From Aureobasidium sp. EXF-3400 (Eukaryota > Ascomycota > Dothideomycetes > Dothideales > Saccotheciaceae): a stretch of DNA of 64,000 nucleotides. The translations under genes were made by a program, and so were the position numbers. How positions within the stretch are numbered: the first letter of the stretch is position 1; each line of letters opens with the position of its first letter. Below are positions 2,353 to 20,859 of the stretch, one piece after another. The notes under the pieces are model-generated. The model was not told where the DNA came from. It did not search any database and worked only from the letters and a program-made list of their open reading frames with translations. The stretch lies in contig SWBL01000067.1 in assembly GCA_024195585.1 (NCBI GenBank), forward strand, positions 110,136 through 174,135. The letters run 5' to 3'.

Positions 2353-2392
2353 TACTTATTTGGGGTCATACAATCATAACGATGTGATACTC

Positions 2393-3151
2393 TTAGGCCT
2401 TCATCATCTGGATGAACTTGTCTCCCATAGCATCAGCAGCCATAGGGTTTGCACCACTGACGACTTCGCGGTCGACAGTGATGTATCCGACTTTCTGAGC
2501 AAGACCCTCAACCATCTCAGCACCCTCTGCACGTAGCGCACTCTCAACCTTTGGGATCTCAGCACCCAGCATCGTCTCCATCATAGACTCCTCCATGTCA
2601 GACCAGCTGGTAAGCTTGTAGCCAGCATACAAAAACTTGCCGCTTGAAGCCTTGGTGGATAGGAAAGCATAAGGTCCGTGGCAGATGACCGCAGTAGGCT
2701 TCTGCTTGCCGTGGAAATGCTCGAGAATACGACCCAAGTCCTTGTTGTCACCGAGATCTGTCAGAGGTGCATGGCCGCCAGGAATAAAAACACCACGGAA
2801 AGATTCAAGTTCTTCATTGCTGATGTCTCTGAACTTTCTGGGCGATGAGAAGCCGTTCTCCTTCTTCATGCGCTCGACTAGTTCGTTCTCACGGCGGCGC
2901 TCGTAGAAGTTTCCAGCGAAGGCGAGAAGAGATTCGCTGTTGGGGTCGGGGACTGGCTCTTTGCCTTCGGGTGTGGCGAAGGTGACTTCGTAACCTGCCT
3001 CGAGGAGCTTGGACAAAGGCTTTGCGAGTTCCATGAGGAAGAATCCAGAGGGTTGTGAAACGACCTTGCCTGCATCGGTGCCGGAAGTCTTCTTCATGTC
3101 GAAGTGGTCGGCATCCGAGAGGATGATAAGGACTTTTTGCGAAGATGCCAT
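2393..3151 (-). CDS. DJ-1/PfpI family protein (Hsp31-like, putative glyoxalase III/deglycase)
   Basis: 252 aa from the ATG at 3151 (MASSQKVLII); the upstream in-frame extension lacks family similarity. The class I glutamine-amidotransferase-like fold is clear. A Rossmann start (KVLIILSDAD) is followed by Glu41 in FFLMELAKP, the GGHAPLTDL loop near residue 126, and the nucleophile elbow AVICHGP with Cys157-His158. This matches Hsp31-type glutathione-independent glyoxalases/chaperones, which detoxify methylglyoxal in the cytosol. No signal peptide is seen and the gene has no intron. The exact activity (glyoxalase, deglycase or chaperone) is inferred from family. Confidence 0.85.
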   Translation of the reverse strand: MASSQKVLIILSDADHFDMKKTSGTDAGKVVSQPSGFFLMELAKPLSKLLEAGYEVTFATPEGKEPVPDPNSESLLAFAGNFYERRRENELVERMKKENGFSSPRKFRDISNEELESFRGVFIPGGHAPLTDLGDNKDLGRILEHFHGKQKPTAVICHGPYAFLSTKASSGKFLYAGYKLTSWSDMEESMMETMLGAEIPKVESALRAEGAEMVEGLAQKVGYITVDREVVSGANPMAADAMGDKFIQMMKA

Positions 3152-3863
3152 GATTCTTGTTTTGTGACTGTTGTGTTGGTGAGAGAAGCAGGTATTGATA
3201 GATTCAAAATGAGAAGATAACGAGAGCAGAGAAAATATTGCAGAGATGGCATTTTGTACCATGGTGTTCCGCTGATATCCACGAAAGTCACTATGACGTC
3301 GGGCTGACTGTGAACGACTATATCCATTTTTCACTCGTATTCGAGTCATGATACTGATTGATTGAAAATGTTGGGTTATGATGCAAGTTCTATGCCATAA
3401 ACAAGTGGATTTTCATTATTCTCTCCTCTTTGTTCTGTGTTTGGTGATTTGTGTTGGGTTTTGGGAGTGAACGTGGACGAGGGACCGTGTGACTGGGAGC
3501 GAGTCTCACCGCGTGGAAGACATCAGCACTAACACCCCTTTATACGCATCGTCTGAGCCTGAAAAGCCTATGTCTTGATCAGTAGGTCTTTAAGTGTTTC
3601 CTTGACAACTAAAAACGTCAATAGAACCATGTTCGGACTGTATATCGTTGCAGAAACAGGGGAACAGGGTCGTATTGACAGCAACTATCTGATTCTGCCG
3701 AAGTTATTCCGTCAGACGCGTCTTCTCGATCGCGTATGTCGTCTAACTCTTCCTCTGCGTATTCCTCCGGACTAGGAACACCGTCACTCGACAAAGTAGG
3801 AGACCGACAAGTGAATGTTTCGCTATCGATGTACTGGTACAACTTCTTTCTCTTGCTTCGAAT
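3152..3863. other. Intergenic, promoter side of the DJ-1-like gene
   Basis: About 700 bp. The part next to 3151 is pyrimidine-rich promoter-like sequence for the DJ-1-like gene. A 74-codon minus-strand frame at 3618-3842 begins with TTG only and has no recognisable content. I see no convincing gene here. Confidence 0.5.
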
Positions 3864-5143
3864 TCAGGCCCTTCTGTCATCGCTGTAGGTGATTTGGAAG
3901 TCCGTCTTCTTCACAATGCGATCCTGGGATCCATGACTCTCGCTCGAGTCAGAATCTTGTTGGCTTTCCGCTCGTGCACCGGAACAGATTATAGGCAGCG
4001 GTGACGAAGGCACAGTCTCCGTCATCAAGAGCGACCGTCGGGGTTTGCTCAATGAACGCAGCTTCGAAGACTGTCCGGACCTAGAACTCCGGCTGGCGTT
4101 GCTCACAGGTACTTTTGTGTGAGTACTGAGACTAGTCGCGGCACGCTTCAAGGGTTGGATCGCTGTTGCGAGAAAACTGTAACCTACCAGAGCGATTTGC
4201 CAGTAGAGCGCGGATCCATACACGATCGTGGAGCTGTCTTCAGAGCCGATGTAGTGATTGAAGGCAACAAGGAAAGTTATCGAGATCGGTATAAGACTGG
4301 GAATGTCAGTCAGTACAATTGAGGGCAACTGAAGAGCTTACTGACGGAAGTCTCATGCCGAAAATGGTTATAACGGCGATTTTATATTGAGTTTTCATGT
4401 TCAGTCCACAGAACAAATATGATGATGACAGAAAGATGAACAGCTCGATGATGATGCTGAGAACTAGAATCGCCTCTAGACTCTTCGCCTGCAACAATGT
4501 GAGCAATCGCTACGAATCTGTCATTCGCTCTTCTGCTTACGTTACGACTGCAGACCACCGACTGAGGCGCAGATGACAGATGTGGCTGCGAACAACGAGA
4601 AGCCCAAGTAGCAGCAGCGGAAATCGCCCAGATAGCGGTAAGTCCTGAACCACCAGCAAACACTGCGATGTACTTCTTGTCTCTCATGGTGCCTCTGCAG
4701 ATGATTTTGTACAGCATTGCCACCGTTGACAGCTTCGAGAAGCCATCTGCAACGAAACACAAACAAGAACTCTTCATGACAAACTATGACTTATGTTAGC
4801 TGCTGCACTCCCCATGAACTGGCTTTTCCTTACTGAAGCAATTCGAAGGGTTAGCTCTTCTGGCAAGTTGCGATGAGAGATACCTAGTCCATCGTGAAGC
4901 GCCTGATAAATACATCCGAACGACGCCATGGCGAGGATCTAGATCGAATGTCAGTCGCGAAACACATCGATCCAGAGATTTCTCACTTACGAACGCAAGA
5001 ATGAGAAGCAAGTCCTCTAGCCCACACTCATGACCTCGCACAACAAGGCGCACAACAAGAGCCAAAGCACAAAGGATGACTGCCCATGTGGTTTCCACCC
5101 AGAGCCAAGGTGATGCATCTACATCGATCAAGCGTCCAGGCAT
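3864..5143 (-). CDS. Rhodopsin-domain fungal integral membrane protein (PTH11/SAT20-like type)
   Basis: Five exons, 5143-4991, 4938-4834, 4783-4541, 4488-4346 and 4296-3864, give 358 aa in frame. Donors include GTAAGT and GTAAGC, and a GTCAGT at the fourth exon. The N-terminus MPGRLIDVD leads into TM helices. GFSKLST in helix 3 and FGMRLP near the end of helix 5 match the fungal rhodopsin-like (pfam20684-type) layout of seven helices with a long polar cytosolic tail. The tail here (about residues 265-358) is Ser/Arg-rich, then acidic. Proteins of this family are plasma-membrane sensors or remain uncharacterised. The ligand is unknown. The donor of the fourth intron is the least certain join. 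Confidence 0.7.
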
Positions 5144-6464
5144 GATAAGAGAAGGATGAGGCTGGAGATGAACCAACGCAGCGAGGTTGGTGAACCTATG
5201 CTGGTTGCTATATCCTTCGCTACATCAGGCTCTGTCCGGAAAATTGGTTCATGGCATTCGTGCAGTTGCAGAAGGGTTCCTTGCTGCTTGCCACCATGCC
5301 TTGATCCTTCAACTCCAGGTCACAGCATCTCATTCAGGGTAATTTCACAGACGTTGAATAGCGCATGTCCATGCATATGCCATACAAGGATTGCGAGTCG
5401 CAGTGCTGTCGAGCTCAAAACAGGCAGTCTGCAAGCCACACACTAGTTAGTGGACGTGAGCACACCTTGTATGGTGAGCTTGAGCAGGGGCATGTCGGGT
5501 ATTGTTTAGGCATTGCTTTGTCGGGATTCTGAAATTCGACTCAGTCAAGTTCCAACGCGGGATGGTTGGCAGCGACGTCGAGAATTTGATCTACAGGCTC
5601 ATCATCCAATCGAACTCCTCATGGATCGTGTCGGATATAAGTCCATGATTATCGGATGTTATGGCAGTCGCGTGATGTTGATTGTGTTGAGCCGCTGCTG
5701 TTTTAGAGGGTGGGGTGAACCATTGCTTCGGGACTTGTTCGCCATATACCGCGCCCCATCCGAGCTCCTGCAGGACCCCGAGGGTTCCAACATGAACGCT
5801 CCGGACCATCCAATTGAGGATCATTTTTGGAAATAGCAGATCAACGACCGAAGGGCAATGAAGCTGAGCTGGGCCATATTCGTCCCGACAATATAATTGC
5901 CGCGTCTCCTCGAGACACCTTAATTCCAGCTTCGTCATTGCTGCAATCCTTCAGAGCGACCAGCATTAGACGTAATATGTCGGATCCAAGTGTGGTTCCT
6001 AGCCGCTTCACACACCGTGCCGCGAAGCCTATAGGCTCCTGGTCGAGACCTGCATGCTGACAGTCTGCAATATAAATCAAATTGGCTCCTTTCTACAAGA
6101 CCTTGGCATTTGATGTATGACCCCAAAGACTGTCCGACTAGCATCGCGGACCATGTGGCACGAACCCAGAGCCGTGTCAACCACTGTCAAAAACCTTGTC
6201 AAGTGCAGTCTGCTCGAGCACTCTGCATATTAAGCGAGGCCTGGTCCTTGAGATCATCTCTCAATCTTCTCTTTCTTTGGTTGATGAACGAATGGCGTGT
6301 TCACTTCTTCAGTCATGCCTCAGGATTGACACGGCATTGAAGGAATGCGATCACAGGCTGAATGAATTGTAGGCCGTGTATATAAAGCTGTCAGTGCCCA
6401 TTTATTCAAGATGTTTTCTTAGACCTCCGCGACCAGCGTGATCTTGCGCGTACAATCAGTCCAG
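5144..6464. other. 1.3-kb intergenic region between divergent genes
   Basis: This separates the rhodopsin-domain gene from the permease. Several 80-115-codon frames exist on both strands (for example 5591-5938 minus, ATG-started), but none shows a recognisable domain, a splice partner or protein-like composition. A TATA-like stretch (gtatataaag) at about 6377-6386 lies about 80 bp upstream of the permease ATG. Confidence 0.5.
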
Positions 6465-8310
6465 ATGGTAGTCATCAAGCGTCATGGTTTCCAGGAGGAT
6501 GGCCCCTCCACGCACCATGAATCGTCTATCGACGACAGAGACATGCAACGGATGGCACTTCCTGCAGAGCTTCGCGTGAGTATCCAAGAGGTGCTCAATC
6601 CGTCCAGAGTGGCTAAAGACAAAACAGCGTCGTTTCAAGCTTGCCTCTGTGATCGGCTTTGCGTGCATTTCCGGGGCAACCTGGGAGTGGGCACTTGTGT
6701 GAGTTGTCTATTGTCATCCAAACAATACCACTTGTGCTGATTCGTTGCATAGATCCAGCCAGGGCGGCCTCACAAATGGTGGCTCGGGAGGTTAGTCATC
6801 TACTTCTTTCAGGAGCATCCGAGACTAATCAAATCAGGTGTGATCTGGATCTTCCTAGCTGTGATGATAGGTATGTTCACAGTCGTACTCTCCATGGCTG
6901 AGATGGCATCGATGTACGTAGTAGTTTCTGTTCTCTCCCCAGACGGGAGTTAACAAATCGCAGAGCACCAAGCGCTGCTGGACAGTACATGTGGGTGTCC
7001 GAACTCGGTCCTCCAGGAGCGCAGCGTCTGTTGAGCTATTTTGTCGGTAAGTCAGATTGGAGCCGTGTGCAAAAGGGAGGTGCTCATGCGTTGTAGGATG
7101 GTTCGCAGCCATAGGATGGCAAGGCGCTGCTGCCAGTAACCCTCTTGTTCTTGCTCAACATGTCGAAGCCCTCGTCGCCTTGAACAACCCGACATTCGAG
7201 GTCAAAGGCTGGATGACGAGTCTTCTCATGATTGCATGCGCAGCTCTCGCAACTTGCGTCAACATCTATGGCATCCGCTTCCTGTCGTCTCTGGAAGCAA
7301 TCATGCTGGCGCTCCATGTTGTAGGATTCTTTGCGGTCCTCATTCCATTGTGGCTGATGGGCGAGCGAAGTACTACACACGATGTCTTCTTCACGTTCGA
7401 AGACAATGCTGGATGGGGAAGCATTGGCACAGCTTGCCTGGTAGGCCTTCTGGGTCCAATCATGACCCTTATCGGTGGTGACTCGACAGTTCATCTTGGT
7501 GAAGAGATCAGGGATGCTTCGCGGACCTTACCCCTGTCGATGGTGTTCACATCCCTGATGAACTACGCCGTCGGCTTTATCATGACCATTACTGTCATGT
7601 ACGTCTCCTCGACGTTCGATCAGACGATTGCCGACGCGACTGGCGAAAGTTATGTGGCAGTGATTTATGCTGCCACAGGATCCAAGACTGCAACGACCAT
7701 CCTCACCGTACTCGTCTTGGTGTTGTTCTTCTGTACAGCCATCAACACAGTCACAACTTCCTCGCGTCAACTGTTTGCTTTTGCCCGTGATGGTGGCCTG
7801 CCATTCTCGAATATTCTGGCGAAGGTTGACCCTAGGACTGGATTGCCTATCAATGCGCTCGTTACAACATTCGGAGTCACCTTCGTATTGTCTTGGATCA
7901 TCTGCGGGTCGAGCATCGCTTTCCAGAACATAACCTCGATCACCATTGTCGGACTCTTGCTTTCCTATGGCACGACTATTGCAACCATGCTTTACCGACG
8001 ATGGAGTGGTGTGCCGTTGCCTGCAGCTCGTTGGAGGTATCCACAGGCTTTTGGCTACCTAGTCAATGTGTTGGCCTTGTGTTTCGTCGCAGTTGCATTC
8101 ATCTTTGCATACTTCCCAACTGCACCAGGTCCTTCTGCAGAGTCGATGAACTGGAGTGTAGTGGTTACCGTAGCAGTCGTGGTGGTTGCGACAGTTTATT
8201 ACTTCATCCGCGCGTCAAGCACTTTCGAAGGACCGGCAGTCAGGATGAAGAAAGCTGAAGATGACAGCATGGTTGCCATGGAGGACATTGTGATTCCCGG
8301 AAAGCAGTGA
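6465..8310 (+). CDS. APC-superfamily permease (choline/GABA/amino-acid permease, ACT family)
   Basis: Six exons, 6465-6575, 6619-6698, 6753-6790, 6838-6913, 6964-7046 and 7097-8310, give 533 aa. The N-terminus has the family signature DMQRMALPAELR, followed by FKLASVIGFACISGATWEWAL and GLTNGGSGGVIWIF. Next come SMAEMASIAPSAAGQYMWVSEL and a GWFAAIGWQ helix, typical of Hnm1/Uga4/Bio5-like transporters with 12 TM helices. The loop GGDSTVHLGEEIRDA matches the conserved APC 'ED/EEI' region. It is a plasma-membrane proton-coupled uptake system for choline-like or amino-acid-like compounds. It lies 248 bp before the Zn2Cys6 regulator at one end of the catabolic cluster and is probably its uptake arm. 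Substrate specificity cannot be read from sequence. Confidence 0.88.
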
Positions 8311-8557
8311 TGGAGGATAGAACATGACAGACGTAGCAGTAGTCTTACAAAGAAGCTGCTCCTCTAGAACAGTCATACAGTCTTCGATAGTGCTCGTGTT
8401 TGCAAGAAGGTTGAAGACGCGACGCGGATTTCGACGTCACCTTCGGAAAACTGTTTTCCGAACCGCAGTTGCCCCGCCATGTTTTTTCCGATCAAGGAAG
8501 GCGCGTCTCCGCGACATGAACTCCTCACACGCAGACCATACACCATGAGTTGCAGGC

Positions 8558-10138
8558 ATGTCAGGAACACGCAGTCGCACAGGCTGTATGGCATGTCGAC
8601 GTCGAAAGAAAAGATGTGATGAGATGAGGCCAATTTGCCGACGCTGTCAAGTATCTGGCGTGTCTTGTGTTTATCCCAATGCCAGTGGAGCTTTCAGCGA
8701 ACGATACCTCATCTCGTCAGCTCTGGAGCATTACATGTTGCCGGACAGCCCTTCTGAACGACACTTTATCAATCTTGGCCTAAAAGACATTTCTCGTCTG
8801 TGTCTGACTTATGACTCATCGGCTGATTGCATTTCGAGTTTCGATATTCTTGCCGGCCGAGAGGTCCCGAAGGCATTGCCTGCTGCTGATGTTCTTGTAG
8901 ATGTGTCTGAGAGACAGCTACTTCAATACTGTAAGGCCAACCAAGTTCAATCATAGTATGAGCTTACACTCTGTCTAGACTCCGAAGTGATCAGCATAAG
9001 CAGAGTATATGTTACTGGAGATGAGAACCCGTTCTGTTCATTGACCATGCCAATCGTGTATACCCGCCGTGGCCCTTTACTTTACACGATTCTTGCATTG
9101 AGTGCAGCCGAGATGGCTAGTTCAGGAAACAGCTATTCCGATCGGCTCATGACCAAAGCTTCAACATACTACGACAGTGCGGTCAACCAATTACAGCTCT
9201 CACTAGCCAACTCGCATGACGCCGAAGAGAACATTCTGACCTGTGTACTCCTGTCCTCTTTCGAGATCTCCAACGGGCAACGCTCAGCCTGGCTCCAGCA
9301 CCTCAATGGCGCTGTGGCCATACACAACCATTTTGCACCGTTCATCAGTCCAGAGTGCGCCCTCTTTGCTTACCAATACTTTGGCTTCAGATGGATACTG
9401 TTGGAGACTACTATGCCTCCAGGAACTTATCCATTGGAAGAAGTGACAAGCGAGACCTCTATGACTGCCCGACTCTTACAGAATTTGAGCACAATGTTAC
9501 AACAGACTATCGATACGGTACCTACCGTTGCGATGCAGAACATTGACAACAAGCTCGGTTGTTCTTTAGAGTATCTGCAACTTGTCAACAGGATATCGAC
9601 ACTGTCAGCTCTCAAGTATCATTGTCAGGCAGATAAAACTGTTGCAGAAGAGACATCCGACCTATACTCTATCACAGCATTGGCTTTTGATGATGCTCTG
9701 AGTGATATGGTGTTTGTTGCCAAGACCCGAGATTACTATCTCGAGCACAGCAGTCAATGCTTCAAACTTGCTGGAAGAGTATACCTTCGCCTGATCTGCC
9801 TCGATGCTAGTCTCAGTCAGTTGGCTTTGGCTGATATGCAAACTGATCTGCTGAAAGCGTTGCGCTTGGTCATCAACGAGGATCAGCAACGCCGAGCCTT
9901 TCCTATGTGGCCATTGTTTATCGCTGGTTGCGCTTCCTTTGAGGATGAGCACCGGAAGACTGTCCTGGATATGTTCCGCACTCTGGAGAGGAAGTGGCCT
10001 ATCAGCAACATCTCATACGTCCGAAATGTCACGACACAAATCTGGCAGAGTCGAGACTCGAACGGAGTTGACAACAACCGAAGACATGACTGGCAGACGC
10101 TTATTACAACGTTTGGCTGGAAGCTCGCCTTGTCTTGA
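8558..10138 (+). CDS. Zn(II)2Cys6 transcription factor, putative cluster regulator
   Basis: Two exons, 8558-8930 and 8979-10138, give 510 aa. The binuclear zinc cluster is complete: Cys10, 13, 20, 27, 30 and 37, with spacing C-x2-C-x6-C-x6-C-x2-C-x6-C and the basic stretch RRRKKR between. The middle and C-terminal part is the helical 'fungal-specific transcription factor domain 2' type (RRGPLLYTILALSAAEM, then HNHFAPFIS and similar helices). It is nuclear. It lies inside the catabolic cluster between permease and FAD enzyme, so it is the natural candidate regulator, as PrnA is for the Aspergillus prn genes. Whether it binds the 13-bp motif found in the enzyme promoters is untested. Confidence 0.88.
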
Positions 10139-10274
10139 AAGCCGCGCTCTGACATAGCACAGACTCGCGCTCATGTCATCGGGAGTTTTATATCCAGATC
10201 AAATCTCAAAATTATCAAAGACATTCAAAATTTGAAGCAGGGATCGTCGAGGTTGTATACACACACTACAGTAG

Positions 10275-11663
10275 CTACAAACGCGCCTGCAAGCCTCCTC
10301 TTCTGGCCTCATCAATCAACTCACTCAGCTCTCTAGACTTTCCGATACGCCAACTCACGCCATCACCCCAATCTTGACCTCTTCCATCCTTGGTCTTCCA
10401 ACACCATCTATCTATATTTTGTCTGCCGTTCTCCAGCAAATCAATCACCCACTTGCCAAAGATTGGCATCATCTTGAATCCATGTCCCGAATCGCCAGAT
10501 AACACAACAACAGAATTGTTTGTGCCTGGGAGAAAATCAATGCAATACTCAGAGTCGCTAGTATCGGCAAACCAGCACAACTTTTTATCAACGAATGGGC
10601 GATCCGCCATCCATGGAAACGTCTCGCTCAACAACCTTCGCAACTTGATCTCATCTTCTGCAGGTATGAAGTCTTGAGGAGGTGGTATTCTGTCCATCGG
10701 TGGTAGCGAGGTGCCCTCCTTGTTCGTGTTGCTGAACCCAGCGCCAAGTGGACACAGCTTGAATAACCTTGTGGCGGGGTCTGGTTCGAAGAAGAAACCG
10801 AGGTCGCGGACATTAATGACAGGAAGACCACGCAAGTAGTCACATTCTTGCTCGGTGAGTTGGACGTGAGCGACAGACCAACTACGTGCAACGACAAAAC
10901 GACCCATCTCTGGAACGAGCGAGGCTCCCCAAGCTCCAGAGGCTACTATTGTTCTTGCTGCGGGATGTGTGATGCCATCTGCTGTGCGTACGCCAGTGCA
11001 TTTCCGATCCTTGCCTTGACCTTCGTATACAAGCTCTGTGACAGTACCGGCTAATCGGCCAAGGACAAACTTGATACCCAAGGTTGCGCAATGCAGGAAA
11101 ATGCCTTTCAACGCATTTGCAGAATGGGCGTAGCCAGCCAGACGATTGTAGTATCCTGTGAACCCGTTGAGCGGCCCTGAGATCTGCCAGGCATACTTTC
11201 TGATCTCATCGGCATTATCCAACACTTGGATGCCAGGAGCAAAAACTGTATGTTTAGAAACAGACGCAAGCGCTGTGTCCAAACTCTTCTTTGCTTTCTC
11301 AGGAGCGGATCCCGAAGTGGCTACAATGTATCCGGTTTCGTGATAGTACGGGCCGAAGAGAGGATCTTTCCAGGCTTCAATCGCTTGCTGAGAAAAAGTC
11401 AGTTGTTCTGTCCGCTCTAGCGGTTCCTCCACCAGACTTACGAGGGCAAGATCCGTGTAGAAGCTTTCTTCATACTCTGCACGAACGATCTTGTTAATGT
11501 CGTAGGCTGCCGAATAGCGAGAGGGGATAGAATCAGCAGTCTCAAAGACAGTGATGTTTGTGTACCCAGCTCGGTGGAGATGGAGCGCAGTAGAAAGACC
11601 CCAGGCACCCCCGCCAACGATTGCAATGGGCTCAGGTTTTGACATGGTGGACGCAAGAAGCAT
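10275..11663 (-). CDS. FAD-dependent oxidase, sarcosine/fructosyl-amino-acid oxidase family, PTS1-like tail
   Basis: Two exons, 11663-11442 and 11387-10275, give 444 aa. A second ATG six codons later (11645) is also possible. The 54-nt intron (GTAAGT..TTTCTCAG) has no stop and keeps frame, so a naive reading inserts 18 false residues. The dinucleotide-binding motif is IVGGGAWGLSTA near residue 14. LCWFADTSD carries the Cys that corresponds to the covalent-flavin Cys of monomeric sarcosine oxidases. SGDSGHGFKMMPIFGK is the family C-terminal signature. These enzymes oxidise secondary or N-methyl amino acids with O2, giving H2O2. The protein ends in Ala-Arg-Leu, a PTS1-type peroxisomal signal. 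In this cluster it is a candidate N-demethylase of an N-methyl amino acid. L-pipecolate or saccharopine oxidase is an alternative. Confidence 0.85.
   Translation of the reverse strand: MLLASTMSKPEPIAIVGGGAWGLSTALHLHRAGYTNITVFETADSIPSRYSAAYDINKIVRAEYEESFYTDLALVSLVEEPLERTEQLTFSQQAIEAWKDPLFGPYYHETGYIVATSGSAPEKAKKSLDTALASVSKHTVFAPGIQVLDNADEIRKYAWQISGPLNGFTGYYNRLAGYAHSANALKGIFLHCATLGIKFVLGRLAGTVTELVYEGQGKDRKCTGVRTADGITHPAARTIVASGAWGASLVPEMGRFVVARSWSVAHVQLTEQECDYLRGLPVINVRDLGFFFEPDPATRLFKLCPLGAGFSNTNKEGTSLPPMDRIPPPQDFIPAEDEIKLRRLLSETFPWMADRPFVDKKLCWFADTSDSEYCIDFLPGTNNSVVVLSGDSGHGFKMMPIFGKWVIDLLENGRQNIDRWCWKTKDGRGQDWGDGVSWRIGKSRELSELIDEARRGGLQARL
11388..11441 (-). other. In-frame 54-nt intron of the FAD oxidase
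   Basis: On the minus strand it starts GTAAGT, has a CTGAC branch site and ends TTTTTCTCAG. It is exactly 18 codons without a stop. Removing it joins the catalytically typical stretch DLAL directly to QAIEAWKDPLF, as in relatives. Confidence 0.85.
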
Positions 11664-11888
11664 AAAGCGAGGTTATTGGAAGGAAGATTCGATCTCGAAG
11701 GAAAGCCGTATGCGATCAGTTGATGCCACAAAAAGATGCATGCTTCTATGACCCGACTTTCGTCCATAAAACGAGATGCTTGATCCAGTTGTTATCTCTG
11801 TGTGACGATAAATCGGCTAGTGCTTCCGTCTCGAGCGTGTTCTTGGACGAATGTACAACTTGTCAAGCAGATCCGATGATAGCGACGG

Positions 11889-11901
11889 TTAGCGTAGCCG
11901 C
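11889..11901 (+). promoter_or_regulatory. YTAGCGTARSCGC motif, copy 1
   Basis: Reads TTAGCGTAGCCGC, identical to copy 5 at 16316. It lies 226 bp upstream of the FAD oxidase start. Flanks are not conserved between copies, so it looks like a binding site rather than a dispersed repeat. Confidence 0.6.
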
Positions 11902-11952
11902 ACTCCACGACCCCACCACGGAAGACGATGGCGTCGGAACCACTGCCGATGG

Positions 11953-11965
11953 CTAGCGTAGCCGC
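11953..11965 (+). promoter_or_regulatory. YTAGCGTARSCGC motif, copy 2
   Basis: Reads CTAGCGTAGCCGC, 64 bp from copy 1 (centre to centre) and on the same strand, in the FAD oxidase promoter. Confidence 0.6.
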
Positions 11966-12129
11966 CTTCTCGTAGAACTCATCACGGAGATCTGGCTTTG
12001 CAAATCGTGATATGGCTTATGCGTGATCTACATGTTGCCGATGTTAGAGACGTCAATAGTAAGAACAATTGTATTGCAGCACATGGATGGGTGTTCAGAA
12101 ATATTCGACATGCAACTATTCTATATGAC

Positions 12130-13907
12130 TCAAGCAAGATTGCTAGGATAAAGTACAGACTGTAGCGGAATCATTTCTTCTTTCAAGGTCCTAGGGGAAG
12201 TAAACCGCATCAAAACATTTGCACTTCCAGCCTTGTCATTTGTTCCGCTGCTTCTGCTTCCGCCGAAGGATTGATGGCCAATCACGGCTCCTGTGGTCTT
12301 GCAGTTGAGGTAAAAGTTACCAGCCGAGTATCGTAGTGTGTCTTCCGCTTGACGAAGAACTGCCCGATCATTTGCAAAGATCGCACCTGTCAGAGCGAAG
12401 CCGCCCCCTTGCGTATCGATCTTGGCCATGACTTGCTCGAACTCTTCGTCAGGGTAAACATACGCCACGAGTACTGGGCCGAAGATCTCTTGATCAAATA
12501 ACTCATGGTCAAGCGTGTTTGCGACGTATAACGAAGGTTGGATGAAATGACCCTTGCTTCCATCATAAGAGCCGCCAAAGACCTTCTGTAGTCTGCTGTC
12601 ACCGTTTGCCTTGTCTATGATCTTGGTGATCTTGTCAAATGCTCCTTTGTGAATAACTGGACCCAAGAAGTTTTCGTAATCTTCGGGTGGGCCTACTTTG
12701 ACTGGTTCCATCTCTTTCTTGATCTGCTCGAGAAACTCCTGTGCTCTGCTTTCCGGAATGTAGACTCGGGAACAAGCAGAGCACTTCTGACCGGAATACT
12801 CAAAGGCAGCTCGAACAGTATGCTTGACGGCATTGCTTATGTCGGCTGAAGAGTGTATCAAGTGGAAGTTTTTACCAGAGGTCTCTCCTACCATTCGTGG
12901 CATATCGCGATACTTCTTGTTGACGACGCCTTCTGCTGCTTTGCCATACAAGCTTCGGAAGACATCTGAAGATCCAGTGAAATTGAGGGCTGAGAATTCT
13001 TTGTGTTCGTACACAGTTTTCGTGATGAGCTCTGCATCGCCAGGCAGGAATTGGATGACGTTAGGCGGTAGACCAGCTTCGAGAAGAATCTGATATACCA
13101 GCCAGCTTGCATAGACGCCTGTCGGTGAAGGCTTCCACAGTACGACGTTACCCATGATTGCTGGGCCGGAGACAAGGTTACCGCCGATAGCAGTGAAGTT
13201 GAATGGTGACACTGCATAGACAAAGCCTTCGAGCGGGCGCCAGTCGGTTCGTCTGTATGATATCAGTATCGCCGTCTCAAGATTTGGTCTATCAGGGCTC
13301 ACCCAAAATTGCCTGGGGCGTTCAAAGTCGGCTGCTTATTGTATACCTCTTCAGCGTATGAGACATTGAATCGGAAGAAGTCTGCAAGTTCGGCAGCAGC
13401 GTCAATCTCGGCCTGCCAGGCGTTCTTGCCTTGACCCAGCATAGTCGCCGCTACCAACTCATATCTGTACTTGCCAGCTACCAACTCCGCAGCCTTCAGG
13501 AAGATTGCAGCACGATCCACGAACGGAGTCTTCTGCCATGACTTCTTGGCTTCGAGTGCTGATGCAATTGCGTTTTGGACGTCTTCAACACTTGCGGCAC
13601 TGGACTTTGCGAACTCCTGAGCATGTTCCGAGGGTATAGTAGATGTGAGAGATTGGCTTGTTGATCTTGAGGTTCCTGAGACGTGAAGCGGTACATGCAT
13701 AGGAAGTTTGGAGCGCAATGCCCGCAAGGCTTCGTCGAGCCTTGCTCTCTCTGGAGAAGACTTTGCGTAATGCAGATTCTCCTCGTTGCGAGCGTTTGGC
13801 AGCTTGAAGTGACCGCTCGTAGCTACCCCAGCCTTCAAGGAAGGCACCCGGATAGATGTTCGGACATGTTTCCATGGAAGTATTTGCAAGCGTGATACTG
13901 AACGCAT
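12130..13907 (-). CDS. prnC: Delta-1-pyrroline-5-carboxylate dehydrogenase (ALDH4/PutA C-domain type)
   Basis: Two exons, 13907-13303 and 13252-12130, with a 50-nt intron, give 575 aa. It oxidises glutamate-gamma-semialdehyde (from P5C) to glutamate with NAD+ in the mitochondrial matrix. The N-terminus (MRSVSRLQILPWKHVRTS) is a basic, Ser/Arg-rich presequence. FKLPNARNEEN, LEGFVYAVSPFNFTAIGGN, the Glu motif MVGETSGKN and the catalytic Cys motif FEYSGQKCSACSR are all intact. The exon join restores NFGRTDWRPLEGF. It is the functional counterpart of Aspergillus PrnC and yeast Put2. It is divergent from the proline dehydrogenase across a 519-bp shared promoter, so the two steps of proline degradation are probably co-regulated. 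The symbol is by function, not proven orthology. Confidence 0.93.
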
Positions 13908-14053
13908 TGTCGAGAAAGATCTTTCAAGCAGAGAGATTGTTTCCAGCTGTCGAATTTGGCCCAGGGTGATAGCTTTGAGGGAACTTGAGATGAAAAGTTC
14001 AACCTCGCCGCTAGGCTGTCGCTCACAGTCATTGACATGGCGAAAGACCGCAG

Positions 14054-14066
14054 GCGCTTACGCTAG
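14054..14066 (-). promoter_or_regulatory. YTAGCGTARSCGC motif, copy 3
   Basis: Minus-strand CTAGCGTAAGCGC in the divergent P5CDH/PRODH promoter. Confidence 0.6.
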
Positions 14067-14187
14067 CCTTCGGATTGTGCTACCGATGTTTGTTATCTGT
14101 TCATGAACATTTGCGGAGATCAAGAGGTTGAGGGCTCGGAGGGGCTTGCGACGGAAGGTGCAAAGTGGGGAACTCGGCAAGGCTCCC

Positions 14188-14200
14188 GCGCTTACGCTAA
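14188..14200 (-). promoter_or_regulatory. YTAGCGTARSCGC motif, copy 4
   Basis: Minus-strand TTAGCGTAAGCGC in the divergent P5CDH/PRODH promoter, 134 bp from copy 3 and in the same orientation. Confidence 0.6.
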
Positions 14201-14426
14201 CCTCTGCTCCTGAACTCACGACAGACCACCTTTTTTCTCCCTCCATATGGGACGTCACCCGACTGCGGCAAAAGATAGTCAAGTCTCGTTCCTGTACACC
14301 CTTCTGACTGGTTATTTTGGCGATTTTGGGCAAGCCAACGCGATATGTCTCAACATGTATCAACCTCGAGGACTTCAACCTGTCGAGAGAATCTGCATCT
14401 TGTGATTTTGTGACAAGACGCAAATC

Positions 14427-16004
14427 ATGCAAGCAGCAACTCAGTCTCTACACAGTTTGAAACTCGGCACTAAATCCATGCCATTGCCTTTCAGCAATGC
14501 CTCCAATATTTTAGTCAGCCAGATACGCCTCCAGTATCATCGCCGCAGCTACACTTCCCTGACGTCCCAACAGCGAAATGGTTCGCATGTTCTGAGCACG
14601 CCCTCCCGACGTACTCTTCAAGCCTTACCGACAACGACCCTAGTGCGGTCGCTTGTGGTTCTCTCAGCTACGGCCCTTCCGGCAAGATTGCTGGCTTCTC
14701 TCATTCGCTTGACCAAGAAGCACGTCCATATCATCGAATCTGTTGGTCCTTTGCGATGGACCTTCAAGAAGTTGTTGTACGACAACTTCTGTATTGGCTT
14801 TCAAGAAGATGAGATTCGGGCCAAGACTCAAGAACTTCGTCGCGTTGGCTTCACAGGCATCGTATTGGCGAATGCTCGTGAGGCTCAGCCTACTACAGAT
14901 TCTCATGTGGGTTCAGTAATTGACGACGTTCAATGTGAGGAATGGGTCAACAACAATCTCGAATCTGTACAACAAGCCGAGCCTGGCGACTACATTGGTC
15001 TGAGATTCACAGGGGCGGGTGCAGCAGCCGCAAAATTCCTGTCAGATTTCTCGGCCACTTGCAAATCTCACAGTTCGGAAGAAGCATGCAAGCTCTATCC
15101 TTCTGAGATGCAGTACTTCGTCTCGCAGGTGGAACGAATATGCAAAGCAGCCGCAGCGCGACAAATCCGAGTTTTGATCGATGCCGAATCATCCACTTAC
15201 CAGAGGGCGATCGATTTTGCAGCTCTGGTGAGTCTTCATAAATTCTGTTCTGGTGGCTCGACTGAGTTATAGCTTAGCATATCATGCGCCACTTCAATAC
15301 TTCGCAGAGAGCTCTAGTGTTGAACACTTATCAAATGTCAGTCTCACGCACACTGTTGGAGAGAAACATCACTGACTTGAAGCAGGTATCTCAACTCGAG
15401 TGCTGACAAACTCAAATCGCATCTCAATCACTCGATGAAGAATGGCTATATACTCGGAATCAAGATGGTGCGAGGCGCATACCTTCACACTGAACTTGAC
15501 AAACAATCCCTTCACGTCTCCAAACAACAGACTGACGAAGCTTATGACGATACTGTCCGTTTTCTGTTGCGAGAAGGGAGTGGTGCAGCCTGGAAAGCCG
15601 ATGTCATGCTAGCAACCCACAACGCAAAAAGCGTCCGACAAGCCCTCGATCTATACACCAGCGTTTGCATGACCTCGAAAGAAGACTACAGACTTCGGCC
15701 TCAGGTTTGCGGTGTGGCGTTTGCGCAGCTGATGGGAATGGCTGACGAGGTGTCCATGGAGCTAGTCAACAAAATTGAACAGGCGAAGGAGCAGGAGTCA
15801 AACAAACGAATGACAGAGGTCGACAGCACGAACGTGTATCCTCGTCTTGGTGTATATAAGTATACTGCCTGGGGGTCTCTTCGCGATTGTCTCCTGTACA
15901 TTCTGAGACGAGCAGAGGAGAACAAAGATGCTGCTGCCCGAACCCAGGACACTGCTTTTGCAATATTGCGCGAGCTGCGATCGAGAGTTCTGAACAGGAC
16001 TTGA
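14427..16004 (+). CDS. prnD: Proline dehydrogenase (proline oxidase), mitochondrial
   Basis: Three exons, 14427-15227, 15278-15336 and 15386-16004, give 492 aa. The short middle exon encodes HIMRHFNTSQRALVLNTYQ, and its acceptor is the second AG, just after an in-frame TAG. The enzyme is FAD-dependent, oxidises proline to P5C and passes electrons to the respiratory chain at the inner mitochondrial membrane. The N-terminus is a long basic presequence. Conserved barrel motifs are IRVLIDAESSTYQ, GIKMVRGAYLHTE, LATHNAKSVRQAL, FAQLMGMADE and WGSLRDCLLYILRRAEEN. It pairs with the divergent P5CDH to convert proline to glutamate. The symbol follows the Aspergillus name by function. Confidence 0.92.
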
Positions 16005-16670
16005 TCTTGAAATGCTGTATTCATATCACGACTTAATGCAATCTTCTTAACTGGAGCCCAGTGACATCGCTCTCCCATAAAAGTCTTGAGATGTTTGTCT
16101 TCCCCTCTGTGTTATCGAATGGTTGTGATTGCCGCGGACGTTATCTGATTCGAGTTAACATTCGGTACAGTACGTCTGAGTTCTGCAACGGCAGCTGCAG
16201 AGAGCTCGAGCTAGTGCAGGTGCATTGCTGTCAGGCATCACCCAAAGTCATCGTTATCGAACCATACCCCGCCTTTAGGGTTCCTGCCGATACATGGTGA
16301 TAAGATGTGAGAAAGTTAGCGTAGCCGCCTGTACCAATCACTTCGTGTGGTTCCCGTCATTCCTTCCTTTTGATACTTCATCTTGTGATACAATATTGCG
16401 AATGCTTCGTTTGTCTTTTCCTATACAAGAAGTGATATCCCTCGTTGCACCCACATTCACATCCTGTAGTTGAAGAGATGTTTGGTGGAGAGGTTGCATG
16501 AACAACGAGTCGTTGAAGATAAGCAATACCGATTTGAGCGATGCGGACTATACTTAAGGTCTCTTTCTGACAAGAGATTCGACCGATATACCACTTCCTA
16601 CTGCAAAACTATCCATCGCTCCATCTTCACTCAATTTTGTGTATCAGCACTTGTACGCCAGCCGTCAATC
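16005..16670. promoter_or_regulatory. Intergenic promoter of the Rieske gene
   Basis: 666 bp between PRODH and the Rieske gene. It holds motif copy 5 (TTAGCGTAGCCGC at 16316-16328), about 340 bp upstream of the Rieske ATG. A frame open to the ATG from further upstream is not preceded by a family-like N-terminus. No other gene is seen. Confidence 0.55.
16316..16328 (+). promoter_or_regulatory. YTAGCGTARSCGC motif, copy 5
   Basis: Reads TTAGCGTAGCCGC, identical over 13 bp to copy 1. It is on the coding strand of the Rieske gene. Confidence 0.6.
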
Positions 16671-17979
16671 ATGACTTCTTATCTCAACTATTTTGGCTTC
16701 GGAGGAGACAAGGCGTCATCTGCGAAAGTCGAAGACGCCTTACCAGCAAAGCAGTCTCCAGTCCGAGCCTTGCCGGCTGCATGGTACACTTCACCAGAGA
16801 TGTACGAATTTGAGCGAAGGGCTATCTTTACTCGTAGATGGCTGTTCATGACCCATGCCTCACGCATAAAGAATGCTGGAGACTTCCTTCGCTTCAACAT
16901 TGCTGGGTACGATATCATCATCAACCGCGATCGTGCTGGAGCAGTCAATGCTTTCCACAATGTGTGCAGACATAGTGCTTATCCTGTCGTTGAGAAGAGG
17001 GAAGGCAATGCCAAGATCTTCGCCTGCAGATATCATGGCTGGTCGTACGGTCTGAACGGCAAGCTTGCTAAAGCACCAGGGTACCAAGATCTCGAAGGCT
17101 ACCAGAAAGAACAAAACAGTCTTTTCCGCATCCACGTCAAAGTCGATATCAATGGCTTCATCTGGATCAACATGGACGCAAAAGAAGTGCCAGAAGTGCC
17201 TTGGGAAGAACACTTTGCCGACGTCGACAAGCAAGAAAGATACAAAGATATCAACTTTGACAACTACGAACTCGACCATACTTATGAGCTGGAAGGAGAT
17301 TTCAATTGGAAGATTCTAGCCGACAACTTCAATGAGTGTTACCATTGTCCCACCACTCACCCCGATATCCCTGATTTTATCAATCTCGAGACTTTCGATT
17401 CTGATCTCAAAGACGGCCACATACAGCATCACTGTATCTCTACCCCGGAGCAAGCGTCCAAGGGCTTGGGTGTGCACAGCACATACTACTTTCCAAATAC
17501 TTCCATGACAGCTTCGTAAGTTCTTCAACCAACATCGACTACAGATCGGAATCGCTGACATCCACAAAAGTCCCCATTTCATAATGGTCCAAAAGTTCCT
17601 CCCCAACGGCCCCCTGAAATCAACAATGAACTACGAAATCTACCGCAACAAGCACTCTTCCGAAGAAGATTTCAAGCTCATAAGTTCTATGTATGCTCGT
17701 GTAATGGCAGAAGACAAAGTTCTTTGCGACCAAGCACAGAAGAATCTCAACATTGGAGTTTTTGTAAATGGACAGTTGCATCCAAAGTACGAAAAAGCAC
17801 CGTTGTTTTTCCAACAGACTGTAAGAGAGATTGTTACAGCCCATTACAGGAGGGAACAACGAGAGGGAAGACAGATTTGGCCGGCGAAGCGAGAAGTGGA
17901 TGATGAGGTGAGTAAGGAGGACATCTTGATTTGTGAGGGGATCAGCTGTGGCGAGAAGAAGGAGGCTTTGACATGGTAA
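16671..17979 (+). CDS. Rieske [2Fe-2S] non-haem iron oxygenase, choline-monooxygenase/betaine-demethylase-like
   Basis: Two exons, 16671-17515 and 17571-17979, give 417 aa, starting MTSYLNYFG. The Rieske cluster is complete: Cys99-x-His101, 17 residues, Cys119-x2-His122 (CRHSAYP..CRYHGWSYG). The mononuclear iron site follows in ILADNFNECYHCPTTHPD (His225 and His230), with a likely Asp ligand in the C-terminal half (LCDQAQKNL). This is the group that includes plant choline monooxygenase and the bacterial glycine-betaine and proline-betaine (stachydrine) N-demethylases. It needs a reductase partner, which I do not see nearby. Next to proline dehydrogenase, P5CDH and a sarcosine-oxidase-like enzyme, an N-demethylase role on a betaine is plausible. 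Choline oxidation is the main alternative. Confidence 0.85.
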
Positions 17980-18745
17980 ACATGGGATGATGGAGAAGGC
18001 TATGAAGATTTCCGTAACCAAGTTTCGCCTTGCTACAACAAATCAGACTGTCAATATTTCAATTACTTGCCGGGGTTGGGTCGTTCCTGCATGTATTGTG
18101 TATCTAGGTGCGAAGCATGCGAGTCTGACAATGGCAAGAGCTTCCTAATTGTTCATCAAGTTCCTCCCGGCTGCAATTTCTCATTGCAAGACCTCGACCA
18201 TGTGACGATGGGACCAGCACGAAATTGAAGATAGGCAAGACACATCTGATGCAAGGAACATAGAAATTACGAGATGCCACTGTAGTCCTGCGAAAAAGCA
18301 TGAAGATCGATTGGACCGACACTCACTGCCACACCTTATATACCAGCATCACCACCTCTCTTTCACCAGCCATCGCCTTACCGCCAAGCGGTGGTTGGCC
18401 CAGCGGGCTTGCGCCAGCAATTTGTTGCTGGCGACCTCCGCTGGACGGTCTCCGGTTCGACTCTCGGAGTCGGAATGTAGGAGCCCTTGTGGCTCTTTTC
18501 ACTCGAAACGAAACCAGTGTATCTGGTGGCTTTCTCCCCGCTAATAGGCTCTGTACGACTGAGCCTTGGTAGCGGGGATTTGTTTTGCTAAATCGTGGGT
18601 CTTGAGAATTATTTTTGAGTTGAGGTCAGTTTTATTGTAGTTGACTTGTTATGTTGCGAGCGACTTGTGCATCCATTAAAGTCTTTTTGTCATTGAAACA
18701 CTTATCTGGAAAAGCCAATTCAAAATCCAACATCCAACAGAATGT
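17980..18745. other. Intergenic, hairpin-rich
   Basis: 766 bp between convergent Rieske and GMC genes. Most of the second half is the series of stem-loops listed separately. Otherwise no gene is seen. Confidence 0.5.
18378..18586 (+). ncRNA. Candidate structured RNA: run of strong hairpins with box A/box B-like sequences
   Basis: Consecutive perfect stems are visible: ACCGC/GCGGT; CCAGCGG/CCGCTGG enclosing CGCCAGCAA-TTTG-TTGCTGGCG; CTCCG/CGGAG; GAGCC/GGCTC; ACCAG/CTGGT; and CCCCGCTA/TAGCGGGG enclosing GGCTC/GAGCC, followed closely by TTTT. TGGCCCAGCGG (18396-18406) fits the Pol III box A consensus and GGTTCGACTCT (18454-18464) nearly fits box B. It does not fold as a tRNA. Whether it is transcribed is unknown; it could also be a DNA-level palindrome cluster. 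Confidence 0.3.
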
Positions 18746-20859
18746 TCACAGTTTCCACTTGCCGACCTCTGGCGCATCGGACGTAATCCTCCAGTCTTCT
18801 TTGATGAGATCAGCAGCCTTCTCCGCCACAGTGTATACACTGCTGCAAATGTTACCACTGACGTGGTTCGGGAAAACACTCGCGTCCACTACCCTCAGCC
18901 CCTGAACACCCTTGACCCTCAGCCTGCTATCAACAACCTCTCCCATTGCGCAAGTGCCGATGAGGTGATATTCGCCCATAACCCAATCTTTGACGGCTTC
19001 TTCGCGGTCGGCAGCATCGTCAAGGTCCCTGTATGCGGGTGGATAGGCACGTGTCTGGATTATCGGAGCTAGGTGCTTGGTCTTGGTTGCTCTGTGCATG
19101 AAGTGGAGGCCGGCTGCCAGGACTGCAACATCGGCGGGATGTTTCAGGTATGCAGGATCAATGACTGGGTGAACTGATGGGTCTGTCGTACGAAATGTTA
19201 GCGATGGAGATCTCGTTTAGCACAATTGTCTGCTGGTCTGCACGACTTACCAGAACTCTTGATGTGGCATGAGCCTCGAGAAACAGGATACTGCAAAGCC
19301 GGACCTAGAGTCATGCGGTGGTTCCGAGTGTTGTCAGGTGGAGGCCACACTTTCTGCGTTCGGAGTCCCTCTGCAGTATAATCTGCTCCAGCGGGTATCA
19401 TTATATACTGCAAGTTTGCGGACTTGTCGCTTTTGAGGTGCGCAATTACTTGGTCCAGTTGCTGCTTGTAGAAAGGTGTGGTGTCGGATGAATTCTGAAC
19501 CTCACGAATACTCTTGACGGTCTTCTCAAGTTCGTCGGAGGAGACAACAGCCTTATAGGGAAGGAACCCTTGTGTGCCACTTATGGAGGTCAGCGGTCCT
19601 CGTTGGTGCTCGACGTAAGCGCGCGTGGCTGCTTCCATCGTGTCTGGGTCGCCCAAGATGTCGGAGGTTATGTTACCAGGCTTGAGCTCGAGGCCAAGGA
19701 CAGCAACAGCATGATCCTGGAGATTTCTGCCGACGTCAGGAAGCTCAACCTTGCACTCAACGCCAGCCTGTTTGAGGATTGCAGGGTCACCAATACCAGA
19801 GAGTTCCAGAATCTGTGGCGAATTGATGGTGCCTCCACAAAGGATCACTTCTTTCTTGACATAGACTGTCTCATGCATGCCGTCCCAAACAAACTCTACT
19901 CCTTTCGCGACGCCATTTTCTAAAACGATCTTGTTTACCTGCGCTTCACAGAGTACCTTCAAGTTGGGTCGGCAAGCATTAGCTTGGAAGTAACCACGAG
20001 CAGCATAACTTCTCTTGCCTTTGTGAGGCCCAGATCGTGCTACAGCACCCAGTGTGTTGAAAAAGCCAATATGATCACCACTCCAGGGATCTGTCGGCTT
20101 TTTAGATAGACCCGCGACTTCGTCCCAGGCTTTGATCACAGTATCACTGATTGGAAGGGAGCTATCATTGAAAGAAGTGTGGACTGGACCGCTTGTGCCG
20201 TGATGCTCGCCGACATGAGGATAGTCGGTCTGGTCCAGGATCGATTCATCGATGGGTTCGAGTGTTTCATGCTTGCGCATATATGGCTTAAGAGCCTTCG
20301 AAGACCAACCAGAATCTCCCACAAGAGTTGCCCAGTCATCGTAGTCTGCATCAGATCCTCGGACGTACCTGGGACTATCAGTAAATGCTCATCATGCAAA
20401 CCAGGGTACGATGCAAGATCGCCCACATCATATAGTTGATGGCACTCGAGCCTCCAAGAGCTTTTCCTCTGCTCAAGTGATGTTCGATACCACGTTGCTG
20501 GAACCCATGTCAACAAAGGCACAAATCACACTCGCGAGGGATCCCACCTGCGGTACGGTCTTGAAACAATGATCATATTCAGGATTACCCAACATTTGTA
20601 CGAAAGCAGCAGGATTGTCCACAAGAGGGTCATCCAGTCTTGACTTGCCAACTTCGAGTACTCCAACCACGATTTCGGGGTCTTCTGTCAAGCGGGCAGC
20701 TACAGCAAGACCAGCCGTACCCCCGCCGATGATGACGAAGTCGTAGGTTTCTGATAGGAAGCCTCGAGCGCAGGCGGCAAGGGCTGGAAGAGAAGTGGAA
20801 GCATTGTCGATGCCATACAAGCCCTCAGCGTGGCCCTTGGAATCAGTGGTGGCTGTCAT
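18746..20859 (-). CDS. GMC oxidoreductase (choline dehydrogenase/aryl-alcohol oxidase superfamily)
   Basis: Four exons, 20859-20548, 20497-20427, 20368-19251 and 19182-18746, give 645 aa. The FAD-binding GxGxxG is FVIIGGGTAGLAVAARL near residue 45. The GMC signature 1 is RGKALGGSSAINYM, followed by YVRGSDADYDDW, rebuilt over two short introns. Signature 2 is GTINSPQILELSGIGD. The catalytic His lies in YHLIGTCAMG, and the C-terminal FPNHVSGN is intact. No signal peptide is seen, so it is probably intracellular. It oxidises a primary alcohol to an aldehyde. Sequence alone does not show whether the substrate is choline. It closes the catabolic cluster, but its promoter lacks the 13-bp motif, so membership is uncertain. 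Confidence 0.88.

What the first reader, a model, noticed from the sequence alone, without database searches (positions are those of the whole stretch)
6465..20859. Putative N-methylproline/betaine-to-glutamate catabolic cluster: a prn-type cluster extended by a Rieske oxygenase and a sarcosine-oxidase-like enzyme
Seven genes in about 14.4 kb form a coherent pathway. An APC/choline-type permease imports a quaternary or N-methylated amine. The Rieske oxygenase removes one methyl (as bacterial stachydrine or glycine-betaine demethylases do). The sarcosine-oxidase-like FAD enzyme removes the second. PRODH and P5CDH then convert proline to glutamate. A Zn2Cys6 regulator sits inside. The Aspergillus prn cluster (regulator, permease, PRODH, P5CDH) is established; the added demethylating enzymes are not part of it. 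The GMC enzyme could add a choline-oxidising branch. Substrate assignment is inference.
Basis: partly seen in the sequence, partly recalled or inferred. Interest (0 to 1): 0.88.

Follow-up and report, generated by a model that had tools for sequence, protein, structure and literature searches.

The report
Fungal gene cluster for methylated proline
A black yeast carries a small, co-regulated set of genes that may strip methyl groups from the plant compound proline betaine and then burn the proline, a pathway known from bacteria that our searches did not find described in fungi; the actual food molecule is not proven.

Summary
All seven genes are there, in an Aureobasidium genome of 53 Mb that looks like a hybrid, but they are not one unit. 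A diverged second copy (contig C510, 70-77% DNA identity) keeps five in the same order and orientation: Zn2Cys6 regulator, Sox-type FAD oxidase (FADOX), P5CDH, PRODH, Rieske oxygenase. Permease and GMC homologues lie on other contigs. A 14-bp promoter motif ties the four enzyme genes together: five window sites, four at the matching C510 promoters, and only two others in 53.4 Mb; none at permease, regulator or GMC. The Rieske belongs with quaternary-ammonium (Group V) oxygenases, but has Phe where bacterial stachydrine and glycine-betaine demethylases have Asn, so it is not their orthologue. FADOX has the sarcosine-oxidase carboxylate triad and a peroxisomal-type end. FADOX-PRODH linkage recurs in other fungi; Rieske linkage was seen only in Aureobasidium. 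Best reading: proline betaine to N-methylproline to proline to glutamate (0.4; lowered from 0.5 after the Phe result). Substrate, reductase and importer are unproven. The window's Rieske allele has Ser where 118 of 118 relatives with a readable motif have Arg, so this copy may be impaired.

The parts
6465..8310 (+). PERM: APC-type permease, 530 aa, 6 exons. Neighbour, probably not part of the conserved unit
   Evidence: Pfam AA_permease_2; TIGR00907 284 of 598 bits. Homologue on C119:94861-96654 is collinear with the left flank, not with the core; no TAGCGTA core upstream.
8558..10138 (+). ZN2C6: Zn2Cys6 regulator, 510 aa, intron 8931-8978
   Evidence: Zn_clus + Fungal_trans_2; retained in the C510 copy. 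That it binds the motif is inference.
10275..11645 (-). FADOX: Sox/FAOX-superfamily FAD amine oxidase, 438 aa, exons 10275-11387 and 11442-11645, C-terminus ARL
   Evidence: DAO; intron; Sox Arg52/Tyr55/Lys348 equivalents R55/Y58/K391 (numbers of the unspliced 456-aa reading) invariant in 26 of 26; model of the unspliced reading pLDDT 88, folds; PTS1-type ends in 107 of 120 homologues.
11888..11901 (+). motif GTTAGCGTAGCCGC, 243 bp from the FADOX start
11952..11965 (+). motif GCTAGCGTAGCCGC, 307 bp from the FADOX start
12130..13907 (-). P5CDH, 575 aa, intron 13253-13302
   Evidence: TIGR01236 above cut-off
14054..14067 (-). motif GCTAGCGTAAGCGC in the divergent P5CDH/PRODH promoter
14188..14201 (-). 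motif GTTAGCGTAAGCGC in the divergent P5CDH/PRODH promoter
14427..16004 (+). PRODH, 492 aa, introns 15228-15277 and 15337-15385
   Evidence: Pro_dh; clade apart from the other PRODH pairs of the genome (quick tree); Tyr in 'YKYTAWG', unlike the other three pairs
16315..16328 (+). motif GTTAGCGTAGCCGC, 356 bp from the RIESKE start
16671..17979 (+). RIESKE: Group V-like Rieske non-haem iron oxygenase, 417 aa, intron 17516-17570; codon 16974-16976 gives Ser102 where relatives have Arg; Phe220 at the Group Va/Vb marker position
18746..20859 (-). GMC oxidoreductase, 645 aa, 4 exons. Neighbour, probably not part of the conserved unit
   Evidence: GMC N+C; choline dehydrogenase cut-offs not met; homologue on C49 beside an aspartyl-protease homologue

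Best explanation
A dedicated catabolic regulon for N-methylated proline. RIESKE, fed by a reductase encoded elsewhere, oxidises an N-methyl of proline betaine (stachydrine), held by an aromatic-cation contact as in Group Va rather than by its carboxylate as in Stc2, giving N-methylproline. Peroxisomal FADOX removes the second methyl, giving proline, formaldehyde and H2O2. PRODH and P5CDH convert proline to glutamate in the mitochondrion. One transcription factor, most simply the linked Zn2Cys6 protein, switches on the four enzyme genes through GYTAGCGTARSCGC sites. Shown from sequence: gene families, conserved five-gene block, shared motif, family-level active-site residues, PTS1-type C-terminal tripeptide of FADOX. 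Inferred: substrate, order of steps, binding mode, cell compartments, identity of the factor.
For: Five genes kept in order on C510 while both neighbours differ. pS 0.69-0.78 against pN 0.08-0.18. Of 11 genome hits of the motif 9 lie in the two cluster copies, at the promoters of the four enzyme genes. Rieske profile hits carnitine monooxygenase CntA first (E 9.9e-50), then 4qup (7.6e-38; PDB name 'Monoxygenase; demethylase', that it is Stc2 is recalled), with bridging Glu, CxxC pair and H/H/D residues (PMC10952381, PMC7948474). Cluster Rieske has Phe at position 220 while the genome's C399, C351 and C81 paralogues have the Tyr reported for choline monooxygenases, which suggests another substrate (PMC7948474). 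FADOX carries the Sox carboxylate triad (PMC12582975); the fructosyl oxidases printed lack its Arg and Tyr. FADOX and cluster-type PRODH are on one contig in six non-Aureobasidium cases, and a FADOX paralogue lies beside another PRODH in this genome.
Confidence: 0.4

Rival explanations
1. RIESKE is a Group Va enzyme that cleaves a C-N bond of choline, carnitine or a similar trimethylammonium compound (releasing trimethylamine), and FADOX oxidises L- or D-proline, pipecolate or another imino acid directly; the block is a nitrogen-scavenging island run by one regulator.
Against: The genome has other Rieske genes (C399/C351, C81) with the choline-type Tyr that could be Cmo1. A proline oxidase beside PRODH would be redundant. 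The shared motif argues for one pathway.
Confidence: 0.25
2. Same idea on a related cyclic betaine: hydroxyproline betaine (betonicine), N-methyl-hydroxyproline or pipecolate betaine.
For: A FADOX paralogue lies beside PRODH, P5C-reductase, aminotransferase, DHDPS-family and P5CDH genes at C74/C151, a hydroxyproline-like set.
Against: Cluster PRODH keeps the Tyr replaced by Cys in the C74/C151 PRODH (its link to hydroxyproline preference is recalled, not tested). The core lacks aldolase and aminotransferase.
Confidence: 0.13
3. Osmolyte-recycling regulon: RIESKE and FADOX demethylate glycine betaine and sarcosine, co-regulated with proline breakdown because both solutes accumulate under osmotic stress.
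For: GbcA is the best NCBIfam match of RIESKE (134 bits); FADOX is Sox-like.
Against: GbcA cut-off (670 bits) not met; GbcA is clade Vb with Asn (PMC7948474), here Phe. No dimethylglycine enzyme in the core. FADOX relatives are repeatedly linked to PRODH, which sarcosine would not explain.
Confidence: 0.1
4. FADOX releases proline from fructosyl-proline (Amadori compound), and RIESKE is unrelated to it.
For: Nearest solved structures of FADOX are fructosyl-amine oxidases (27-35% identity).
Against: FADOX has Sox-type Arg and Tyr where the printed fructosyl enzymes have other residues; RIESKE shares its motif.
Confidence: 0.05

Closest known systems
Aspergillus prn cluster (prnA, D, B, C; details recalled)
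   Same: Zn2Cys6 regulator, PRODH and P5CDH clustered
   Different: Rieske and FADOX added; no AA_permease-type proline permease in the conserved core; PRODH is one of at least four pairs in this genome, 39-48% identical to members of its own clade outside Aureobasidium; Aspergillus PrnD was not compared
Sinorhizobium stachydrine catabolism (Stc2 Rieske demethylase; second demethylase StcD recalled)
   Same: Group V Rieske oxygenase thought to feed proline catabolism
   Different: Stc2 is clade Vb (Asn), here Phe (PMC7948474); 4qup aligns mainly over positions 27-235; the second enzyme here is Sox-like
Carnitine monooxygenase CntA
   Same: best PDB match, bridging Glu, CxxC, H/H/D, aromatic at the Va position
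   Different: distant (127 bits); Phe for Tyr; no reductase gene nearby; different gene context
Yeast Cmo1 (putative choline monooxygenase)
   Same: fungal Rieske family of this general kind (PMC5816127, passages); conserved C-terminus reported there, and this family ends in Trp in 112 of 120
   Different: Cmo1 sequence not compared here; the cluster protein has Phe where choline monooxygenases are said to have Tyr
Monomeric sarcosine oxidase / fructosyl-amine oxidase
   Same: fold; Sox carboxylate triad; conserved Cys at the place recalled as the flavin link
   Different: overall closer to FAOX but without its residues at the Sox Arg/Tyr positions; NCBIfam Sox cut-offs not met

Membership tests
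Group V (quaternary-ammonium) Rieske oxygenases | Rieske CxH...CxxH plus 2-His-1-carboxylate iron site | tested here: met
   C99/H101, C119/H122, H225/H230/D330 invariant in 26 of 26, aligned to CntA; the window allele keeps them but has Ser102 after the first motif
Group V (quaternary-ammonium) Rieske oxygenases | bridging Glu and CxxC next to the iron site (PMC7948474, PMC10952381; CxxC only in some members) | tested here: met
   E222, C223, C226 invariant in 26 of 26, aligned with CntA and 4qup
Group Va (carnitine, choline, benzalkonium) | Tyr or Phe at CntA position 203 (PMC7948474) | tested here: met
   Phe220 in window and C510; Phe in 83 and Tyr in 37 of 120 homologues
Group Vb demethylases (Stc2, GbcA) | Asn at CntA position 203 (PMC7948474) | tested here: not met
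   Phe220
Stachydrine demethylase activity | oxidises stachydrine | not testable with these tools
   needs an assay
Glycine betaine monooxygenase GbcA (NF058607) | score above curated cut-off | tested here: not met
   134 of 670 bits
Sarcosine oxidase family (Sox) | Arg52/Tyr55/Lys348 carboxylate anchor (PMC12582975) | tested here: met
   of 120 homologues: R in 95 of 98 with a residue there (22 gaps), Y in 95 of 96 (24 gaps), K in 119 of 120; equivalence rests on motif spacing and FAOX alignments, no Sox sequence was aligned residue by residue
Sarcosine oxidase family (Sox) | TIGR01377 / NF008425 cut-offs | tested here: not met
   63 of 480 and 83 of 257 bits
Fructosyl-amine oxidase | FAOX residues in place of the Sox Arg/Tyr | tested here: not met
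   alignments
prn cluster | PRODH + P5CDH + Zn2Cys6 regulator linked | tested here: met
prn cluster | PRODH orthologous to Aspergillus PrnD | tested here: inconclusive
   clade apart from the genome's other PRODHs (quick tree, arbitrary root); no Aspergillus PrnD in the tree; P0294 (47% identity) and P0304 (33%) are both annotated PrnD
prn cluster | proline permease (PrnB) in the unit | tested here: not met
   the linked permease scores best as AA_permease_2 and is unlinked in the second copy; PrnB was not compared
Choline dehydrogenase (GMC gene) | NF002550 / TIGR01810 cut-offs | tested here: not met
   339 of 605 and 293 of 732 bits

The most novel reading that the evidence does not exclude
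A eukaryotic proline-betaine pathway built by joining a Group Va-type Rieske oxygenase (recruited from the choline-monooxygenase-like fungal family through a Tyr-to-Phe pocket change) and a peroxisomal Sox-type N-methylproline demethylase to a second PRODH/P5CDH pair, under one cis-element nearly confined to this cluster: the same net pathway as in rhizobia, reached with different enzymes.
Probability: 0.38. Interest if true: 0.72.

Novelty: new variant of a known kind. Interest (0 to 1): 0.57.

Why it matters
Proline betaine is plentiful in citrus, legumes and mint-family plants, and Aureobasidium is common on plant surfaces (general knowledge). In the listings seen of six open-access searches (long lists were seen only in part) no fungal gene set for its breakdown appeared. 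The cluster offers four candidate enzymes, a testable binding site and a regulator, and a function for part of a wide fungal Rieske family so far annotated mostly as choline monooxygenase. The PRODH-FADOX pairing in several genera points to a shared pathway beyond Aureobasidium.

Tried and rejected
Dropped: permease and GMC as members; a bacterial operon parallel (0 of 80 loci with a PRODH- or FADOX-profile match at E 1e-5 in the stretches held, up to 8 kb a side, many shorter); a tRNA or known RNA at 18.4 kb (no match). PRODH against the PDB: single sequence gave nothing, and the profile alignment stops before the Tyr site, so the meaning of that Tyr rests on memory; Cys also occurs in PRODHs of Zymoseptoria, Hortaea and Neodothiora. 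The Rieske model was poor (pLDDT 65) and was not searched. Reductase: five Fer2 matches in the genome; the best, in a 347-aa frame on C172, could not be read. dN/dS could be computed for PRODH alone (0.11). Motif: the pattern with D and K was written after seeing C510. The window-only form GYTAGCGTARSCGC, counted by hand from the list, fits 5 window sites, 3 of 4 C510 sites (one at each matching promoter) and 1 other (C499, inside a long frame). The tool's control, the pattern read backwards, gave 13 genome hits, places not shown, so 2 stray hits are no surprise. Against a strict cluster confinement: a one-mismatch copy of the 12-mer lies at 23259 in the protease gene; bare TAGCGTA occurs at 1745 and 27646 in the window and in some other loci, once in L022; and GGTTAGCGTAAG without the CGC end lies about 235 bp upstream of the first ATG of the C8 PRODH frame, so the element may reach further into proline control.
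Full report
Host. The best Rieske match is named from Aureobasidium sp. EXF-12298 and differs from the window by one residue. G000 has 53.4 Mb in 717 contigs, and the genes looked at occur mostly as two diverged copies (about 65-86% DNA identity among the pairs aligned). Highly heterozygous diploid hybrids are described for A. melanogenum (PMC9535773, passages seen), though the SNP densities given there, about 4%, are far below the divergence here. I treat the two copies as those of two parental genomes; that is inference.

Gene content. Seven genes were modelled and Pfam confirms each. P5CDH passes its NCBIfam equivalog cut-off; the Rieske, GMC, permease and FAD-oxidase proteins pass none of those listed. 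FADOX has a 54-bp in-frame intron that I first missed; it showed as a low-confidence loop in the model and is absent from P0121.

What is the unit? On contig C510 (25,961 bp) RIESKE, PRODH, P5CDH, FADOX and ZN2C6 recur in the same order and relative orientation, with tblastn identities of 65-88% and DNA identity of 70-77% in the long matches. PERM and GMC gave no hit on C510. PERM's homologue is on C119, collinear with window 630-8311 and followed by a GST and a Cef1/Myb gene. GMC's homologue is on C49 beside an aspartyl-protease homologue, and window 24484-28645 matches C190. C510 has sugar-transporter-type MFS genes on both sides and a DUF4246 gene. So five genes stayed together while both neighbours differ. 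Non-synonymous differences are 8-18% against 69-78% synonymous, so the proteins are under purifying selection.

Shared promoter element. GYTAGCGTARSCGC was noticed by eye. It occurs at five places in the window: two upstream of FADOX, two in the divergent P5CDH/PRODH promoter, one upstream of RIESKE, 154-366 bp from start codons. It recurs at each of the three corresponding promoters of C510, where intergenic DNA otherwise gave two short alignments. In the whole genome the slightly wider KYTAGCGTADSCGC has 11 matches, 9 in the two cluster copies (5 + 4); the other two are C302:49138 (not readable) and C499:779, in a long frame. The backward control gave 13 scattered or unplaced hits. In the window, 100 dinucleotide shuffles gave no match of the 15-base form. 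The extended motif is absent from the C151/C74 stretches L020, L022 and L056, and no TAGCGTA core lies upstream of PERM, ZN2C6 or GMC. Partial matches elsewhere, one of them upstream of the C8 PRODH, are listed under Tried and rejected. This motif is the strongest evidence that RIESKE and FADOX work with PRODH and P5CDH.

RIESKE. A profile of 26 fungal relatives hits CntA over positions 28-339 (E 9.9e-50), then 4qup and 3vca (7.6e-38 and 9.7e-38; recalled as Stc2). Bridging Glu, CxxC, both Rieske pairs and the H/H/D iron site are invariant in the alignment, as described for Group V (PMC10952381, PMC7948474; passages seen). A late check changed the picture: PMC7948474 splits Group V by the residue at CntA 203. 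Tyr or Phe marks Va (carnitine, choline, benzalkonium); Asn marks Vb, the demethylases of glycine betaine and stachydrine. Window and C510 have Phe, the genome's C399, C351 and C81 genes have Tyr, and the 120 listed homologues have Phe in 83 and Tyr in 37. So the cluster enzyme is no orthologue of Stc2 or GbcA, and demethylation by it would need a different binding mode; on the other hand the cluster clade differs from its choline-type paralogues at just this site. I lowered the main reading from 0.5 to 0.4 and raised the choline/carnitine rival for this. In a tree of 59 rows window and C510 sit in a clade with Aspergillus, Penicillium, Fusarium and other proteins, apart from C399, C351 and C81 (C81 is a long branch of unsure place). 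The window codes Ser102 where 118 of 118 homologues with a readable motif have Arg (2 of 120 unread), and C510 has Arg. Error, strain variant or damage cannot be told apart.

PRODH and the paralogous locus. At least eight PRODH loci exist, which I take as four pairs. The cluster pair falls in a clade with Nectriaceae, Exophiala, Coniosporium and other sequences (quick tree, arbitrary root; Aspergillus PrnD not included). It alone in this genome keeps Tyr in the YKYTAWG motif (YQYTAWG in C510); the others have Cys, Leu and Cys. From memory this is the site where Ser marks human hydroxyproline dehydrogenase; not tested here. The C151/C74 pair lies with a second FADOX (64%), a Zn2Cys6 gene, P5C reductase, an aminotransferase, a DHDPS-family gene (read on C74 only) and P5CDH (families scanned on the C74 copy): a likely hydroxyproline locus.

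Other fungi. The listed representatives from Exophiala oligosperma and E. aquamarina are on different contigs. RIESKE and PRODH are on different contigs in 6 of 6 species with both listed: Coniosporium, F. decemcellulare (different assemblies, so weak), Byssothecium, Pseudopithomyces, and Bimuria and Karstenula, where the listed Rieske is of the 57-58% kind. Each list shows the best 120 hits and one contig per cluster, so these are rough counts; the fungal contigs themselves were not available.

Verdict. Proline betaine is the reading that uses all four enzymes without redundancy, but no call shows a substrate and the Va marker speaks against a Stc2-like mechanism. Papers were seen as search listings and passages only (PMC5816127, PMC10952381, PMC7948474, PMC12582975, PMC9535773); none was read whole.

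Noticed in passing
window 16974-16976: RIESKE codes Ser102 directly after the first Rieske Cys-x-His, where 118 of 118 homologues with a readable motif have Arg; the C510 copy has Arg.
   Followed up: partly
L020, L022, L056 (contigs C151 and C74): Likely fungal hydroxyproline cluster: second FADOX with ARL end, Zn2Cys6 gene, PRODH with Cys at the YKY position, P5C reductase, aminotransferase, DHDPS-family gene, P5CDH.
   Followed up: partly
L028 (contig C81): A third Rieske gene beside an FMN-dependent dehydrogenase, an SDR and an old-yellow-enzyme-family gene; could be another methylated-amine locus.
   Followed up: partly
L018:623-2815 (C510:10623-12815): DUF4246 gene beside the C510 copy of the cluster, with MFS transporters on both sides of the block.
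   Followed up: no
L021:6188-6205 (contig C8): GGTTAGCGTAAG, a partial copy of the cluster motif, about 235 bp upstream of the first ATG of another PRODH frame; not seen at that place in the C150 copy.
   Followed up: partly
window 18380-18560: tRNA-like stretch with a GGTTCGACTC box between RIESKE and GMC; ARAGORN (bacterial code) and Rfam give no match.
   Followed up: partly
   Followed up: partly
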